Of a stretch of 64,000 bases of DNA, positions 38,812-63,844 are shown in pieces. The position numbers were made by a program, and so were the translations under genes. Every line of letters begins with the position of its first letter. Position 1 is the first letter of the stretch. Source of the DNA: Parabacteroides faecis (lineage in GTDB: Bacteria > Bacteroidota > Bacteroidia > Bacteroidales > Tannerellaceae); NCBI RefSeq assembly GCF_014647375.1, contig NZ_BMPB01000016.1, positions 124,001-188,000 of the forward strand, written 5' to 3'. The notes beneath the pieces were generated by a model that made no database searches, had not been told where the DNA came from, and saw nothing but the letters and a program-made list of their open reading frames with translations.

Positions 38812-40098
38812 ATGTATATGCTGAAAAAAATGATTGAAAAATGGTATCGTCTGTTCATTGGACGGATGCTTGCCGGGAAAAATGATGTGGCGGAAACTGT
38901 GTCGGAGAAAATATCTTCAAAGCAGCTTACTACACCCCTTAAGAAAGACGGTTCTATGCAAAAAGGGACCGGCATGATGGTCTGTATGGAGCAGTTTTTG
39001 GAAGAACAGTATGATTTTCGTTTCAACATGCTGACGGAAGAGACGGAATACAGGAAGCGGAACGTTCCTTCGGTTGGTTTCCACCCTGTTGGACAGCGCG
39101 AATTAAACAGTTTCTGTATCGAAGCGCGAAAAAACGGAATCGATTGCTGGGACAGGGATGTGTCGCGCTATGTGTTATCGGATAGTATTTCTGAATATCA
39201 TCCGTTCCGTTTGTTTATGGAAGAATTGCCGGAATGGGACGGGACAGACCGGGTCATACCTTTGGCACGCCGGGTCTCATCGGACGGGTTGTGGGTGAGA
39301 GGGTTTCGCCGTTGGTTGCTGGGGATAGCGGCACAATGGCTGGGAACAGACCGCTTGCATTCGAACAGCGTTTCGCCGGTGTTGGTCAGCCGCGTGCAAG
39401 GTCGGCAAAAGTCTACTTTTTGTAAATTATTATTGCCCGGTGAGTTGAAACGATATTATACGGATTGTTTCGATTTGACGGCTCAATCTGCAGCCGAACG
39501 TAAACTGACTGAGTTCGGTTTGATCAATATGGATGAGTTCGATAAATTCACTTCCCGTAAGATGGCTTTGTTGAAGAATCTGATGCAGGTGGTCGATCCG
39601 TGTATTCGTAAGGCACATCAGAAAAGTTACCGTTCCTTGCCTCGCGTCGCTTCTTTTATTGCTACATCCAACCAGAAAGAGCTACTGACCGACCCAACCG
39701 GTAGCCGGCGTTTCCTTTGTGTGGAGATAGAACATAAAATTGATTGTTCTGCCATTGATTATCGCCAACTTTATGCGCAACTGAAAGCAGAGTTGGCAGC
39801 AGGTGAACGCTATTGGTTCACTTCCGAAGAGGAGGCGGAGATCATGACGGCCAATGAGGCGTTTTATAAGCATCCGGTGGAAGAGGAGGTGTTCAAATCT
39901 TGTTTCCGTCCTGCCGGATATGGCGAGAAGGCGTTGATGTTATCTGCCGCGGAGATTTTCCTGCGATTGAAAAAGCACAATCCGGCAGCGATGCGTTCAG
40001 TATCGGCAGGTAATTTCGGAAAGCTTCTTTCTTCCCTGGGAATTGAACGGAAACATACTGAAAACGGTAATTTGTATCTGGTGGTAGCACAGGGGTAA
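38812..40098 (+). CDS. VirE-like (BT4735-type) P-loop ATPase with DUF3874-like C-terminus
   Basis: The 428-residue protein has the virulence-associated-E/primase-helicase ATPase core: a Walker-A-like VQGRQKSTF near residue 195, Walker B INMDEFD near 241 and a sensor-like IATSN near 285. The N-terminal region (WDRDVSRYVLSDSISEYHPF) precedes the ATPase as in related proteins, and the last 90 residues resemble DUF3874. This class is related to SF3 helicases of mobile elements. It stands divergent to the HU-like gene; both are inside the 18-bp inverted repeats. Its role is unknown. A second ATG lies at 38818. Confidence 0.85.
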   Translation: MYMLKKMIEKWYRLFIGRMLAGKNDVAETVSEKISSKQLTTPLKKDGSMQKGTGMMVCMEQFLEEQYDFRFNMLTEETEYRKRNVPSVGFHPVGQRELNSFCIEARKNGIDCWDRDVSRYVLSDSISEYHPFRLFMEELPEWDGTDRVIPLARRVSSDGLWVRGFRRWLLGIAAQWLGTDRLHSNSVSPVLVSRVQGRQKSTFCKLLLPGELKRYYTDCFDLTAQSAAERKLTEFGLINMDEFDKFTSRKMALLKNLMQVVDPCIRKAHQKSYRSLPRVASFIATSNQKELLTDPTGSRRFLCVEIEHKIDCSAIDYRQLYAQLKAELAAGERYWFTSEEEAEIMTANEAFYKHPVEEEVFKSCFRPAGYGEKALMLSAAEIFLRLKKHNPAAMRSVSAGNFGKLLSSLGIERKHTENGNLYLVVAQG

Positions 40099-40385
40099 AA
40101 GGCGTTTTTGGGGGTGAAAAAAGATAAATTAACATTTCTCCTCAAAAAGAGAGGAAATGCTCTTTGACGGAGAGCAAAACGGTATTAATCCATCTTTCAG
40201 TTTTACGAGCTGACAATCAGTGTGATAAGTTGGCTGAAACCTGAAAGGTGGATTGTGTTATTATATATGTACACGTACATTAATCTATATCTATACTTCA
40301 ATTTAACATTTGGGGGGATTTAAAAAAATGCGAAAGTAATAATCTGATATCCAGAATATAAGTGCAGAAAAAATGATGAAAAGTG
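40099..40385. other. Intergenic region with small inverted repeats, no gene
   Basis: No frame is convincing. It holds a GCTCT/AGAGC hairpin (40159-40175), the right 18-bp inverted repeat (40231-40248) and an ATGTAC-AC-GTACAT palindrome (40267-40280). A partial CATTTC/GAAATG pair just after the VirE-like gene may be its terminator. Confidence 0.6.
40231..40248 (-). repeat. Right 18-bp inverted repeat bounding the HU/VirE module
   Basis: TGGCTGAAACCTGAAAGG is the exact reverse complement of 37836-37853. No obvious target duplication flanks the pair. Confidence 0.85.
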
Positions 40386-40418
40386 ATGACTGAATTAAAC
40401 GTCCCTTTTTTCTCGTCA
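40386..40418 (+). repeat. Left 33-bp inverted repeat of a putative invertible promoter
   Basis: The arm is identical to the reverse complement of 40560-40592 except that a GA at positions 7-8 is AG in the other arm. The inner 25 bases (40394-40418, from ATTAAACGTCCC to TCTCGTCA) are perfect. The enclosed spacer is 141 bp. Confidence 0.9.
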
Positions 40419-40438
40419 ACAAAAGTAATCATTCCTTT

Positions 40439-40446
40439 CAAATCTA
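40439..40446 (-). promoter_or_regulatory. Promoter -7 box inside the invertible segment, pointing away from the surface gene
   Basis: CAAATCTA on the plus strand is TAGATTTG on the minus strand, an exact TAnnTTTG. The -33 region upstream of it on the minus strand is AT-rich without a TTTG. After inversion of 40386-40592 it would lie at about 40532-40539 facing the gene at 40660. Confidence 0.5.
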
Positions 40447-40559
40447 CAATCCTTTTTGAGTAAAAATTATCTTTCCTATATTCTTTCTTATCAGTTAGAT
40501 AACAATCCTAGTACAAAAAAGCGGTTTTTTATTACGAAGTCAAAATGGACTCTAAAAAA

Positions 40560-40592
40560 TGACGAGAAAAAAGGGACGTTTAATCTAGTCAT
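40560..40592 (-). repeat. Right 33-bp inverted repeat of a putative invertible promoter
   Basis: Reverse complement of the left arm with two mismatches near its outer end. It ends 67 bases before the ATG of the large surface protein gene. Between it and that ATG I see no TAnnTTTG box on the plus strand. Confidence 0.9.
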
Positions 40593-40659
40593 TAACATTT
40601 GAGCGTCCGACAGAATACAGAACATTACGAACATTAGTATTAATATTAAATTTAGAATT

Positions 40660-43600
40660 ATGAACAAAAAGTTTTCTACGCTTGTAGGATGTCTTTTGCT
40701 GGGAACTGCGTTCTCGGTAAATGCACAAGATCTTCCTAAATGGTATGATAAGACTCAGGCTGATTTTGCATGGCCTAAAGAGGCTGATTTTGCCGTTAAG
40801 GGAAAAGTTCCAGGTTTTATTTTGAATAAGGATAACGTTAAAACCGCTGGAGATGCGCGTTATCAATTTAGCAATACTTTGAACAGTCTTGTTCCTGGTA
40901 TTTCTGTCGCTTTTGATACGGATAGTAAGAATGGTGTTGCAGAAGCGAATGTTGTTGCAGGTACGAAATTGGAAGAAGGAGCAGCAGGATGGGAAAAAAT
41001 CACACCTGTTTACGGTTCTTTTGACGGAGGTTTGGGTATTATCCCGGGTATGCAGAATAATGGTGAAGTATTTCTGACTCTTAACACACAAGGATTATCT
41101 AACCCGACAAGCATTGAATTTGATATTTATGCTGCTAAAGTTAAAGAAGGTAAGACTCCCAACCGTAATATTAAATGGAAAATTACGGCAAAGTCTTATG
41201 CTTTGAATGGGGCAGGTGATGCTGCAGATCTGAATATTGCGGCTGTAACAGCATCTGGACAGCAGCTTGATGCAACATCTTCTATAGAATATACTGCAAA
41301 CAATGCTGGTATTTTGGCCGGATCTAAATATACCATCCGTTTGAATGAAAATGCAAATGGTGGTAAAAACAGTTTGGCTAATAAAGTGATCGTATTCCAA
41401 ATTACTAATGAAAAAGCATCGGAAGCTGATAATAATGAAGCACAGGATAAAAATGAACCTGTAACAGTTGTTAAAGGTTTGAATTTTACTTATCAGCGTC
41501 CTGAAGTATTGTTCTCTACAACAGGTAAAATTGAAGAGTATGTGACTCCGGCTGTTTTTGCAGAAGAACTTAATGCCGGTGCCGGTTATGAAGTTTCTGA
41601 TAAATTGTATACTCGTATTGAGTATTTTAACCCAGCTGAAAATATAGACCTTACTACTGATAACTTAGAATTGGATTTATTATCTGTTTATAAGTTGTCG
41701 ATAGCTTATCCGTTTACCTTGGATGAAACTAAGTTGCCTGCAGGGCATCTTTTAACTTCTGAAACAAAAGATGGCGTAACTACTTACTGGATTAAAATAG
41801 ACAATAGTAAGCTGACTGCTGGTGGTAAATCTGACGGTTTGTTCACACTGGATAAAACGTATGACGGAAAGGATGGTAATAAGAAGTATATCACAGCTGC
41901 ATTCGATATCAAATTTGCTCCGAAGCAAGTGAAAGATTTTGATGCTTCTAAATATATCAATGCTGAAATTGTGGCTCGTGATGCATCTTTAGCTGAAGCT
42001 CAGTTGGATGGTACATCTGTTCCTTCGTTTATCATCAAGCCTTCGACAATGGCATTTGATGAATATGATCAGACAAAAGAAGCAGGTTTGGAAGTGAAGA
42101 ACTTACCTAAATTTACTAATGATGTAGATTGGATCGCTAATCTGACAAATAACAGCGGAAAACCGTTACAGCCAAAATGTGAAGCTGTTGGCTTTTATGC
42201 TTATGATAAGGATGGTAAATTGATCGATATAAATAAGGATGGAAAGTCTGACGCAAATGATTTTGTAAAAAATGACCAGTTTGACGAAACATTCTTGACT
42301 AATTCCGGAAATTTGAATACTGAAAAGTATAAGACAATTACGCTTGCTGTTAAATACGAAAGAGGAAACGTCTCAACAGACTTGGAACAATCCATTGATT
42401 TCCAGGAAGTGTTTGGCTTGAATAGAGCGTTGAAATTCGAAGGCAACATTGATGCAAACGATTACACCGGTAAAGATTTGGTTGATAAGGATGTTAAAAA
42501 GAATTTGGGTGCTATCTATCCGAATGATCTGAATGTGACAGGCAACAACCAATATGTATGGTTTACTTACGGATCTAACGGTTCGGTTGCTGAAGCTATG
42601 CAGTTACCTGATGGTAAAGTATTGAATGAAGGTGATTTAAAGGGTCATTACGAACGTTATTTCTATGCACCGTTTGAAGCGAATGCTCCGGAAAGTGCAC
42701 GTACTTCTCGTGTAGATACTATTTTCATTCATGCTAGTGAACTGATTCCGACAGTTGATAATAAAGCAATCGTGAAGTTTGCTATCGATCAGGAAGACAA
42801 TGCAGCCTCTAATGATTTCCGTTATAAGGCTTCCGATTCTTATGGTATTGATGTCGCTTACTTTAAGAACCCTGTTACCGGTGCCAAGATTGCAGCCAAT
42901 GAAAACTTCCGTGGCGGTGCTTATACCGATACTTTATATTTTGAAATTGACCTGAACAATGTGGCTATGGTTAAAGCTGTTAAAGAAAAAGGTCTCGAAA
43001 TCAATATGAAGTATGTTGCTGATACAGAAGAATGGGCAGGTGCTGACTATAATGGTGGCGAAACTCAAATCTTTAAAGTGATAACAGCTGACGCAAAAGG
43101 TCATAATGTTTTGCCGGTAAAAGGTCTGACCGATCGTGGCGTTGTTACGAATATTTATGCTCAGAACTATAAGGATTGGTATAAATTCCAGAAATGGGAA
43201 GATGGACCGGGTAGTGATGAGGTTTATGGCGAACAGTTCCCGAACGATTTCGGTACTTCTTATATCAATACTTGCATCAGCGGTGATAGCGCATCATTTG
43301 TGATCGCTGGTATTAACGTGATCGATACAGTAAAGGTTTCTACATTATCTAATCAGAATACCTCATTTGTTTATACACAGGATGAAGCTTCTGAAGCTTA
43401 TGGTACTTTCAGTGTAGATAAAAAGAATCATCTGATGACGATCGTTCCTAACGAATATGGTGAAATTTATGCTAAAATCAATGTTAAGTTTGCTCCGTCA
43501 GCCAATGATAAAGCCCTCGATACGTTGATTTACGAACCCAGACACAAAGCTAATGTGCTGAGAAAGTTCATTTACGAAGATCTGAAATTCGGTATTGGAA

Positions 43601-45342
43601 AACGTAGTGCTCATAAGGATACTAAATTCTATGGTATGGGCGATTTGATTTACCTTGTTAAGGATACGTTGTTCAATACACGTGATGTAATGGGTAAAAA
43701 TATTAAAGTTAGTGAAAACTATACTGGAAATTTAGGTGATGACGTAGAAAAAGTCAAAAAATTCGAATCTGGTTTGTTCTACGATGCAGGCTATACTTAT
43801 CAGGCAGATTCTTTGTTCTCTGTTATCCATGGTGATGCTAAGAAGCCGGTTCTGTTCTTTACGGATGAGAATGGTGCAGTTATCAATACAGCTAAAAAAC
43901 CAATGCAAATGGGTGAGATTGTTTTTGGTACAACTGCAGAAAAAACAATTAATATTGTAGGTCGTGAACTTCCGTTTGAAGATCTTGTTTGGCCGGTAGA
44001 TGAAACAAATAGTTCGACTATCTTCTTCACAAATAGTAATCAGGATATTTATCCTGTAAAAGATGCTAAATATCGTATCAAAGATTTGATGACAGTTCTT
44101 GGTGGTGATGTAACTATTCCTGTTACGATCAAGGCTAAACCGTCCGCTACCGCTCCTTGTGATACATTGACATCGCTGACTGTAAACGTTCCGGTACTTT
44201 GCTCTGTAGACAGTACAATCAATGTTTCATTCAAAACCGTGTTGGTTGGTCCGGAATTGAACGCATTCAAGCCAGGTGATATTCAGGGTGATCGTGCTAA
44301 TCTGACATGGAAGCCCGGATTTAAACAAGGTGAGGTTGAACATGAAGTTGTAGTGGGACTTGTTAAATATAATAAGAAGTCTTCTTCTATTTTTATTTCA
44401 GAAGTGTATGCTCATAATGGAACGTTGGCTGTTGAATTGTTCAATGGTACGGCTAGTAAATTGAATAAAGATATATTCGATATCTCTTCTCCTAACTATT
44501 ATTTGGTTTTGGAAGAATCTGGTAAAGTGATTGAAACCAGACCAATTGTTTCACAATATGATATAGTTGAACCTTATGGAGCAATTGCAGAATGGTTTAA
44601 TTATGACTTTAAGTCTAATACATTGTATACTGTTACTTTGAAACAAGGTAATATCACAATGGATGTATTCCAGTTCTCTACTCCGTCCACTCATATGGGT
44701 AGACGTGATGATCTGATTGCTGCTGGTCAGGAAGTGACAGAAAAGACAGATCCTTACAGAGCAGAAAAATATGATCAGGCACAGTGGACTAACGTTAATA
44801 TCTGGAATATGGGACTTGAATCAGGACAGATCGGATTTGCTGAAACTGTAGCTTATAATGAAACATCTAAACATGCAACAGCATTTGTTGCTTCATGGGA
44901 CGTTGCTAAATCAAGTATGTCTGGTCTTTATGATGGTACCTTGATTAAAGGACTTCATAATAATATCACTTATGATGTTTGGGTAATTCCGGCATTGACA
45001 ACAGGTATGGATTGTGTAAGTCGTGTAATTCCGACGAAAGGTGTTATTGCTACCAGCGATTCTAAACTGAATGGCGGTAATGTTATTGCAGATATTACAT
45101 TTGATATTCCGACTGCAAACGAAGATATCAATTCCAGTGTAACTGCTATATCTGTAGTTGGTGATAACGGAAAGGTTATTGTCCGTAATGCAGCAGGTAA
45201 GTCTGTCTCAGTTTATGATGTATTAGGAAAATCAGTTGTTAAAACAGTTATTTCTTCTAACGAAGTTGAATTTAATGCTCCGAAGGGTGTTGTAGTTGTA
45301 GCTGTTGAAGGTGAACCAGCTGTTAAAGCAATTGTAAAATAA
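40660..45342 (+). CDS. Large secreted surface protein with DUF6383-like C-terminal domain (S-layer-like)
   Basis: The 1560-residue protein has a signal peptide (KFSTLVGCLLLGTAFSVNAQ). A long, Asp/Asn/Thr-rich, mostly beta body follows with no catalytic motif. The last 75 residues (GKVIVRNAAGKSVSVYDVLG, ending AVKAIVK) resemble the DUF6383 domain that ends many Parabacteroides surface proteins and may serve in sorting or attachment. Codon use is biased towards a highly expressed gene. Large abundant surface glycoproteins of Parabacteroides distasonis are known to be phase variable by promoter inversion; the 33-bp inverted repeats just upstream suggest the same here. Function as an S-layer or adhesin is an inference. 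Confidence 0.8.
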   Translation: MNKKFSTLVGCLLLGTAFSVNAQDLPKWYDKTQADFAWPKEADFAVKGKVPGFILNKDNVKTAGDARYQFSNTLNSLVPGISVAFDTDSKNGVAEANVVAGTKLEEGAAGWEKITPVYGSFDGGLGIIPGMQNNGEVFLTLNTQGLSNPTSIEFDIYAAKVKEGKTPNRNIKWKITAKSYALNGAGDAADLNIAAVTASGQQLDATSSIEYTANNAGILAGSKYTIRLNENANGGKNSLANKVIVFQITNEKASEADNNEAQDKNEPVTVVKGLNFTYQRPEVLFSTTGKIEEYVTPAVFAEELNAGAGYEVSDKLYTRIEYFNPAENIDLTTDNLELDLLSVYKLSIAYPFTLDETKLPAGHLLTSETKDGVTTYWIKIDNSKLTAGGKSDGLFTLDKTYDGKDGNKKYITAAFDIKFAPKQVKDFDASKYINAEIVARDASLAEAQLDGTSVPSFIIKPSTMAFDEYDQTKEAGLEVKNLPKFTNDVDWIANLTNNSGKPLQPKCEAVGFYAYDKDGKLIDINKDGKSDANDFVKNDQFDETFLTNSGNLNTEKYKTITLAVKYERGNVSTDLEQSIDFQEVFGLNRALKFEGNIDANDYTGKDLVDKDVKKNLGAIYPNDLNVTGNNQYVWFTYGSNGSVAEAMQLPDGKVLNEGDLKGHYERYFYAPFEANAPESARTSRVDTIFIHASELIPTVDNKAIVKFAIDQEDNAASNDFRYKASDSYGIDVAYFKNPVTGAKIAANENFRGGAYTDTLYFEIDLNNVAMVKAVKEKGLEINMKYVADTEEWAGADYNGGETQIFKVITADAKGHNVLPVKGLTDRGVVTNIYAQNYKDWYKFQKWEDGPGSDEVYGEQFPNDFGTSYINTCISGDSASFVIAGINVIDTVKVSTLSNQNTSFVYTQDEASEAYGTFSVDKKNHLMTIVPNEYGEIYAKINVKFAPSANDKALDTLIYEPRHKANVLRKFIYEDLKFGIGKRSAHKDTKFYGMGDLIYLVKDTLFNTRDVMGKNIKVSENYTGNLGDDVEKVKKFESGLFYDAGYTYQADSLFSVIHGDAKKPVLFFTDENGAVINTAKKPMQMGEIVFGTTAEKTINIVGRELPFEDLVWPVDETNSSTIFFTNSNQDIYPVKDAKYRIKDLMTVLGGDVTIPVTIKAKPSATAPCDTLTSLTVNVPVLCSVDSTINVSFKTVLVGPELNAFKPGDIQGDRANLTWKPGFKQGEVEHEVVVGLVKYNKKSSSIFISEVYAHNGTLAVELFNGTASKLNKDIFDISSPNYYLVLEESGKVIETRPIVSQYDIVEPYGAIAEWFNYDFKSNTLYTVTLKQGNITMDVFQFSTPSTHMGRRDDLIAAGQEVTEKTDPYRAEKYDQAQWTNVNIWNMGLESGQIGFAETVAYNETSKHATAFVASWDVAKSSMSGLYDGTLIKGLHNNITYDVWVIPALTTGMDCVSRVIPTKGVIATSDSKLNGGNVIADITFDIPTANEDINSSVTAISVVGDNGKVIVRNAAGKSVSVYDVLGKSVVKTVISSNEVEFNAPKGVVVVAVEGEPAVKAIVK

Positions 45343-63766: not shown

Positions 63767-63780
63767 TTTCTGTAAGTTAT

Positions 63781-63828
63781 ATAAAACAAAGACAGCCGTC
63801 ATTTTTATGACGGCTGTCTTTGTTTTAT
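63781..63828. terminator. Perfect 22-bp bidirectional terminator after rplQ
   Basis: The arms 63781-63802 and 63807-63828 (core GACAGCCGTCAT/ATGACGGCTGTC, with AAAACAAA and TTTGTTTT ends) pair perfectly around a TTTT loop. It serves both the ribosomal operon and the convergent gene on the minus strand. Confidence 0.92.
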
Positions 63829-63844
63829 ATGGATATTAAATATC

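What the first reader, a model, noticed from the sequence alone, without database searches (positions are those of the whole stretch)
40386..40592. Putative invertible promoter, in OFF orientation, upstream of a 1560-residue surface protein
Two 33-bp arms (25 inner bases perfect, two mismatches outside) enclose 141 bp. Inside lies TAGATTTG on the minus strand, an exact Bacteroidetes -7 box pointing away from the gene at 40660, and no such box faces that gene between the right arm and its ATG. Flipping the segment would move the box to about 40532-40539, giving a leader of roughly 110 bases. Promoter inversion controlling surface glycoproteins is known in Parabacteroides distasonis; this repeat sequence and target may be an undescribed member. 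Alternatives are a MITE or a long hairpin. The arms differ by GA versus AG, which may mark crossover history.
Basis: partly seen in the sequence, partly recalled or inferred. Interest (0 to 1): 0.85.

Follow-up and report, generated by a model that had tools for sequence, protein, structure and literature searches.

The report
Invertible promoter before surface-protein gene
A short DNA segment carrying a promoter sits between two matching recombination sites in front of a large surface-protein gene of a gut Parabacteroides, so flipping it should switch the gene on; here it points away from the gene, and at sister loci in related species the same kind of switch is found flipped.

Summary
The inverted repeat is real and far beyond chance. 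It is one of 19 such segments in this 6.66-Mb Parabacteroides genome. Each arm is a 32-bp near-palindrome whose 2-bp centre is shared by both arms of a segment, as expected for a serine invertase; an Mpi-family invertase gene is present. One correction: the conserved promoter is TTG-N19-TACTTTTG at 40420-40449 (minus), one base from the left arm. It points away from the 1560-residue gene, so this copy is OFF. At a sister locus P. goldsteinii and an unnamed congener differ by a clean inversion of the segment; a second case exists. In 7 genomes 75 of 78 classifiable segments are OFF, 3 ON. Homologous genes stand behind the same arrangement in a genome taken to be P. distasonis ATCC 8503, the species of a published phase-variable S-layer glycoprotein family; hence a new member of a known kind. 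Less expected: gene bodies are often unrelated behind conserved promoters (35 of 49 flank-matched pairs), and each of 8 genomes has an arm-less copy with a forward promoter. No read-level or expression data were available.

The parts
40386..40418 (+). left arm; 32-bp crossover dyad 40387-40418, predicted 2-bp centre TC at 40402-40403
40560..40592 (-). right arm; dyad 40560-40591, predicted centre GA (TC on the other strand) at 40575-40576
40419..40559 (.). 141-bp spacer carrying the promoter; inverts together with the inner half-sites (predicted)
   Evidence: sister loci
40420..40449 (-). promoter P1: TTG (40447-40449), 19 bases, TACTTTTG (40420-40427); points away from the gene = OFF
40439..40446 (-).
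   Evidence: position read by eye
40514..40543 (-). degenerate second promoter-like motif TTG-N19-CTTTTTTG, same direction; an intact box stands at a similar place in some sister segments
   Evidence: read by eye
40593..40659 (+). leader between right arm and start codon
40660..45342 (+). 1560-residue surface-protein gene, start MNKKFSTL, with C-terminal DUF6383
45109..45336 (+). DUF6383, C-terminal domain whose model resembles type IX sorting domains
40137..40176 (-). two minus-strand terminator-like hairpins that could stop the OFF-direction transcript
   Evidence: 3 terminator-like sites on both strands in 39900-40750, 0.5 +/- 0.7 in shuffles

Best explanation
40387-40591 is a promoter-inversion switch. 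A serine invertase, most likely the Mpi-family protein encoded at C13:214213-214815 of the same genome, binds the two 32-bp dyads, cuts at the shared 2-bp centre (TC) and inverts the DNA between. In one orientation promoter P1 (TTG-N19-TACTTTTG) reads into the right arm and the leader of the 1560-residue gene (ON). In the assembled orientation it reads the other way, toward terminator-like hairpins before the upstream gene (OFF). The product is probably carried to the cell surface by the type IX system and belongs to the surface-protein family known from P. distasonis. Shown here: family, site anatomy, promoter conservation, orientation, and both orientations at sister loci in relatives. Inferred: which invertase acts, inversion of this very copy, transcription and surface display.
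For: 19 two-arm segments in the own genome, 19 of 19 with the same 2-bp centre in both arms. In a set of 79 from 7 genomes 78 share the centre; partners shuffled among loci gave a mean of 22.4 and a maximum of 37 in 10000 shuffles. A single core change in one Hin site blocks ligation in the inverted orientation (PMC4817059, passages). A TAnnTTTG box lies within 12 bases of the arm in 78 of 79 segments, 73 of 79 with TTG at exactly 19 bases. Natural inversion at one sister locus: P. goldsteinii L293 against G038 L321 has flanks on the plus strand at 92.7% and 98.9% and the segment on the minus strand at 94.6%; with the segment turned, one alignment of 761 columns at 94.0%; also own L057 against L122, the same G038 locus. 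Second case: L350 (ON) against L336 (OFF). Four control pairs run through in one orientation. Mpi equivalog 323 bits, cut-off 272. C-terminal domain: Foldseek ranks 1-4 are type IX entries; SprA and two PorU-type genes in the genome.
Against: No reads, so inversion inside one population is not shown. The window locus is OFF in both genomes where I could read it (own, and G013 L294), so no ON copy of this very locus was seen. Mpi is over the cut-off in 32 of 39 genus genomes while the strict arm-and-box pattern is in 5 of 39, and G022, one of those 5 (490 contigs), has no Mpi match over the cut-off (best 168.5 bits); so co-occurrence does not single out Mpi. Two weaker Mpi-like paralogues and 23 tyrosine-recombinase matches (22 over the cut-off) also exist in the genome. 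One pair of 79 (L297, a three-arm locus) has unequal centres, and by the same score one of 6 segments of G004 (L358) does too. TIGR04183 scores 19.5 bits for the window domain, below its cut-off of 23; no Foldseek hit reaches E 0.001 and unrelated folds follow from rank 5.
Confidence: 0.92

Rival explanations
1. A once-invertible segment now fixed OFF: the arms survive but this copy no longer flips (two mismatches in the outer half-site, a centre found in no other segment of this genome), so the gene is silent or read from elsewhere.
For: TC centre in 1 of 19 own segments; OFF in both readable genomes; 75 of 78 family members OFF.
Against: Centres and inner half-sites of this copy agree perfectly; outer-half differences are common (mean 3.3 against 1.9 in inner halves, 79 pairs); a TC centre also occurs in a G038 segment.
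Confidence: 0.06
2. A family of miniature transposable elements with terminal inverted repeats that happens to carry a promoter.
For: Many copies of similar length with 32-bp terminal repeats.
Against: No target-site duplications: 14 of 19 share no run of 2-10 flank bases, 4 share 2, 1 shares 5; the arm stands 65-120 bp before the start codon in the 48 assigned segments of G009, G013 and G038; same centre within but not between copies; clean inversion between species.
Confidence: 0.02
3. A long hairpin acting in RNA as terminator or attenuator, not a DNA switch.
For: The arms could pair in a transcript crossing the segment.
Against: Does not predict the conserved promoter beside the arm, the shared 2-bp centre, or inverted sister alleles. 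I did not fold the RNA.
Confidence: 0.02
4. Inversion is real but done by another recombinase: one of the two weaker Mpi-like paralogues or a tyrosine recombinase.
For: L048 and L049 score 188 and 185 bits to the Mpi model, below its cut-off of 272; 23 matches to the tyrosine-recombinase family; G022 has arms but no Mpi match over the cut-off.
Against: A dyad with a 2-bp centre fits a serine invertase; the full Mpi equivalog is present and 95-96.5% identical in G009, G013 and G038, three of the four other genomes with the arm pattern.
Confidence: 0.13

Closest known systems
Phase-variable S-layer glycoprotein (Dgp) family of Parabacteroides distasonis (Fletcher et al. 2007; paper not held; known to me from review passages, reference lists and recall)
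   Same: Genome G004 (contig 4,811,379 bases, the length I recall for ATCC 8503) has MNKKFST-type genes behind inverted-repeat segments of about 215-220 bp with TTG-N19-TACCTTTG; 6 of 6 fetched segments OFF (for one, L361, my script placed no intact start), plus one arm-less copy with a forward promoter
   Different: Arm and spacer sequences have diverged; I compared seven G004 loci only, and none was matched to this locus
Mpi-controlled promoters of Bacteroides fragilis (13 regions, 7 of them capsule promoters; PMC4747536, passages)
   Same: Mpi-family serine invertase in the genome and many distant small promoter segments; TAnnTTTG promoters
   Different: Main targets here are surface proteins with DUF6383; the dyad was not compared with B. 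fragilis sites
Hin/hix DNA inversion of Salmonella (PMC4817059, passages)
   Same: Site whose core must match between the two copies for inversion
   Different: From recall: one segment with its invertase gene and an enhancer; here one distant invertase and many segments; no enhancer was sought

Membership tests
Bacteroidales invertible promoter | promoter between inverted repeats upstream of a gene | tested here: met
Bacteroidales invertible promoter | both orientations occur | tested here: met
   met for sister loci between species; not seen for this very locus (2 of 2 OFF)
Bacteroidales invertible promoter | inversion within one population changes expression | not testable with these tools
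   no reads or RNA data
Mpi serine-invertase regulon | Mpi-family invertase in the genome | tested here: met
   NF009949, 323 bits, cut-off 272
Mpi serine-invertase regulon | dyad crossover sites with matching 2-bp centre | tested here: met
   19 of 19 own segments, 78 of 79 in the wider set; 5 of 6 in G004
Mpi serine-invertase regulon | inversion depends on Mpi | not testable with these tools
   needs a deletion mutant
P. distasonis Dgp-type surface proteins | homologous start, promoter segment and C-terminal domain | tested here: met
   matches to the DUF6383 region lie about 2.6-3.2 kb downstream of the L358, L359 and L362 starts in G004. That G004 is the published strain, and that these are the published genes, rests on recall
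P. distasonis Dgp-type surface proteins | product is a glycosylated S-layer protein | not testable with these tools
   needs protein chemistry
Type IX secretion cargo | C-terminal Ig-like sorting domain | tested here: inconclusive
   Model mean pLDDT 73.5; Foldseek ranks 1-4 are type IX entries, best E 0.006; TIGR04183 below its cut-off for the window domain, though 11 of 11 members match at E up to 1
Type IX secretion cargo | secretion machinery in the genome | tested here: met
   SprA 2929 bits, two PorU-type genes over the cut-off
MITE | target-site duplication at the repeat ends | tested here: not met
   14 of 19 share no run of 2-10 flank bases, 4 share 2, 1 shares 5; the window copy shares none

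The most novel reading that the evidence does not exclude
A two-layer surface-variation system. Invertase-switched promoters are kept silent by default, at least one arm-less copy per genome stands behind a fixed forward promoter, and recombination between the conserved start (MNKKFST leader) and the conserved sorting domain swaps the gene body behind an unchanged promoter, so each switch position can be re-armed with an unrelated surface protein. The 2-bp centres would also sort segments into groups that can or cannot recombine with each other.
Probability: 0.4. Interest if true: 0.72.

Novelty: new member of a known kind. Interest (0 to 1): 0.5.

Why it matters
It extends a published P. distasonis switch family to large-genome Parabacteroides species, with natural inversions between species as evidence, and gives exact crossover and promoter predictions per locus. 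The strong OFF bias (75 of 78) and the unrelated gene bodies behind conserved promoters raise testable questions: why nearly symmetric sites do not give equal numbers of both states, and whether surface proteins are exchanged as cassettes.

Tried and rejected
Tyrosine-recombinase control: listed, not pursued, because the sites look like serine-invertase dyads. MITE: tested by flank duplications. Second promoter P2: intact in some sister segments, degenerate here. Mutual exclusion: 0 or 1 ON in each of 7 genomes, but with 3 ON of 78 this is not distinguishable from rare independent ON states, so not claimed. PDB sequence search with the DUF6383 profile: 6 weak matches, best E 0.052, none a type IX protein. 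Sigma-70 scan of the region: 4 sites against 2.8 +/- 2.0 in shuffles; the E. coli consensus does not apply here. The genome-contig scan gave 101 stretches, 80 of them listed; 10 of the 80 are Parabacteroides records, the rest are from other organisms and were taken as chance matches and not read. DUF6383 in print: 2 papers in the held library, one seen in a passage. Literature searches were seen as listings; passages were seen of PMC10773633, PMC12118408, PMC9409006, PMC4747536, PMC10939037, PMC9722745, PMC12632263, PMC11647740, PMC2943079, PMC3090145, PMC11892184, PMC11285876, PMC4817059 and PMC8748976. No paper was read whole, and I make no statement that anything is absent from print.

Rows dropped or not counted: of the 95 places (whose backwards control gave 3 matches), the 11 of the own genome were replaced by 14 own loci taken from the dyad and DUF6383 lists (the pattern misses L050, L065 and L088); of the other 84 two were not fetched (G013:C66:21845 and G038:C8:3875456, no start codon in the match). 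L089 and L090 (DUF6383, other start, no dyad) were not counted. L297 has no box beside the chosen arms and is unassigned. In one search the own loci L050, L065 and L088 were left out. In one search my script found no gene start in 11 of 30 Mpi loci.

Full report
Observation. The longest perfect arm in 30 simulated windows was 16 nt against 25 observed. The gene 40660-45342 is an open frame of 1560 residues ending in DUF6383.

A family. Allowing 3 mismatches, 23 arm matches occur in the own genome and none for the backwards control. 14 segments match a strict two-arm pattern, and reading further single-arm places with a dyad score brings the number to 19. Eleven lie before genes of the MNKKFST/DUF6383 kind. 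Some others lie before genes that by eye look like polysaccharide genes or sigma factors; these were not tested against families.

Site anatomy. Each arm is close to TGACTAGAAAAAACG-NN-CGTTTTTTCTAGTCA, an inverted repeat in itself. The central two bases, read inward, are the same in both arms in 19 of 19 own segments and vary between segments (TT, AT, GT, AA and TC; TC only here). In a set of 79 segments from 7 genomes 78 agree; shuffled partners agree in 22.4 on average, 37 at most in 10000 shuffles. The exception, L297, is a three-arm locus. In G004 5 of 6 agree by the same score. For Hin, a single core change in one site prevents ligation in the inverted orientation (PMC4817059, passages). 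This fits a serine invertase cutting at the centre.

Promoter. A TAnnTTTG box lies beside one arm in 78 of 79 segments: at 0-2 bases in 58 and at 12 in 1 of the 59 assigned segments of G000, G009, G013 and G038, and at 10-11 bases in the 19 of G012, G014 and G015. TTG stands exactly 19 bases before it in 73 of 79. The published consensus is -33 TTTG and -7 TANNTTTGY (PMC8748976, passage); the window has ATTG and TACTTTTGT. After inversion the box ends one base before the right arm, so transcription should start in the arm and run through a leader of about 95 nt (inferred).

State. In the own genome 11 of 11 segments before this gene family point away from the gene. I searched seven Parabacteroides genomes for the conserved start (95 places), fetched 82 places outside the own genome and added 14 own loci. 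Of these 96 loci 79 have a dyad pair: 75 OFF, 3 ON (one each in G038, G014 and G015), 1 unassigned; 17 have none. Under equal odds 3 or fewer ON of 78 has probability 2.6e-19; this assumes independence and rests on one assembly state per genome. In G004, taken as P. distasonis ATCC 8503 from its length (recalled), 6 of 6 fetched segments are OFF.

Natural inversion. The ON locus of G038 (L122, L321) lies next to a gene that by eye is surE, as does the OFF locus of the own genome (L057); the upstream flank of the OFF locus L293 of G013 matches that of L321 at 92.7%. Flanks align on one strand and the segment on the other; turning the segment gives one alignment of 761 columns at 94.0% for L293 and of 324 at 85% for L057. 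L350 (ON, G015) and L336 (OFF, G012) show the same: upstream flank 83%, leader side 96.5% on one strand, segment 87% on the other. The third ON locus, L341, has no flank partner in the set; its segment runs opposite to the other, OFF segments that it matches. Four control pairs run straight through.

Invertase. C13 holds an Mpi-family gene (323 bits, cut-off 272); two paralogues score below the cut-off. It is 95-96.5% identical in G009, G013 and G038 and 78% in G004. Mpi is over the cut-off in 32 of 39 genus genomes while the strict arm-and-box pattern is in 5 of 39, as arms differ between clades; G022, with the pattern, has no Mpi match over the cut-off (490 contigs). So the assignment is likely but not proven.

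Target. The C-terminal domain models with seven strands (mean pLDDT 73.5). The four best Foldseek hits are type IX translocon or sorting-domain structures, E 0.006-0.02; from rank 5 unrelated proteins are mixed in. TIGR04183 matches 11 of 11 members at E up to 1, below its cut-off for the window domain. SprA and two PorU-type genes are present. A P. gingivalis study lists DUF6383 as a putative type IX targeting domain (PMC9722745, passage). Nine S-layer glycoproteins are reported for P. distasonis (PMC11647740, passage).

Body replacement. The window locus and its G013 counterpart share the upstream gene (74%), segment and leader (77%) and downstream flank (91%), yet the gene between shows no DNA match at E 1e-5 up to its last bases; the proteins share the start (residues 1-37) and the C-terminal domain (49%), with one weak match between (27%, E 0.001). 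Over 71 loci of four genomes, 49 pairs with matching upstream flanks were compared; in 35 residues 29-99 show no similarity, in 14 they do, up to 97%. Some flank matches may be paralogous, and only the first 99 residues were compared.

Arm-less copies. 17 of the 96 loci have no dyad pair. In each of the seven genomes one of them has a forward TTG-N19-TAnnTTTG about 110-115 bp before the start; G004 has one at 108. Four of the 17 (L273, L281, L309, L311) have no forward box within 260 bp. In the G012/G014/G015 group the promoter of the arm-less copies aligns with the ON orientation of a segment. They look like fixed-ON forms; expression is not shown.

Noticed in passing
window 40684-45304 against L308: Gene body unrelated between conserved leader and conserved C-terminal domain at a syntenic locus; 35 of 49 flank-matched pairs show the same over residues 29-99.
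   Followed up: partly
L086, L286, L302, L316, L334, L339, L346, L356: Arm-less members with a forward promoter about 108-115 bp before the start, one in each of 8 genomes read; the proteins behind similar promoters are in several pairs unrelated.
   Followed up: partly
L062:6874-6905: A single dyad-like site (25 of 30 matches) 58-89 bp before the Mpi-family gene, identical in G000, G009, G013 and G038; 14-20 matches in the 15 other genomes where my script found the gene start. Possible self-regulation.
   Followed up: partly
L098:1159-1541 (also L297): A locus with three dyads in a row before one gene in P. goldsteinii; could give more than two arrangements.
   Followed up: no
L060, L067: Dyad-bounded segments before genes that by eye look like sigma factors, with no TAnnTTTG box inside; role unclear.
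   Followed up: no
window 40137-40176: Minus-strand terminator-like hairpins placed to stop the OFF-direction transcript before the upstream VapE-like gene.
   Followed up: no
window 63779-63830: Another perfect 24-bp inverted repeat with a 4-base loop near the window end.
   Followed up: no
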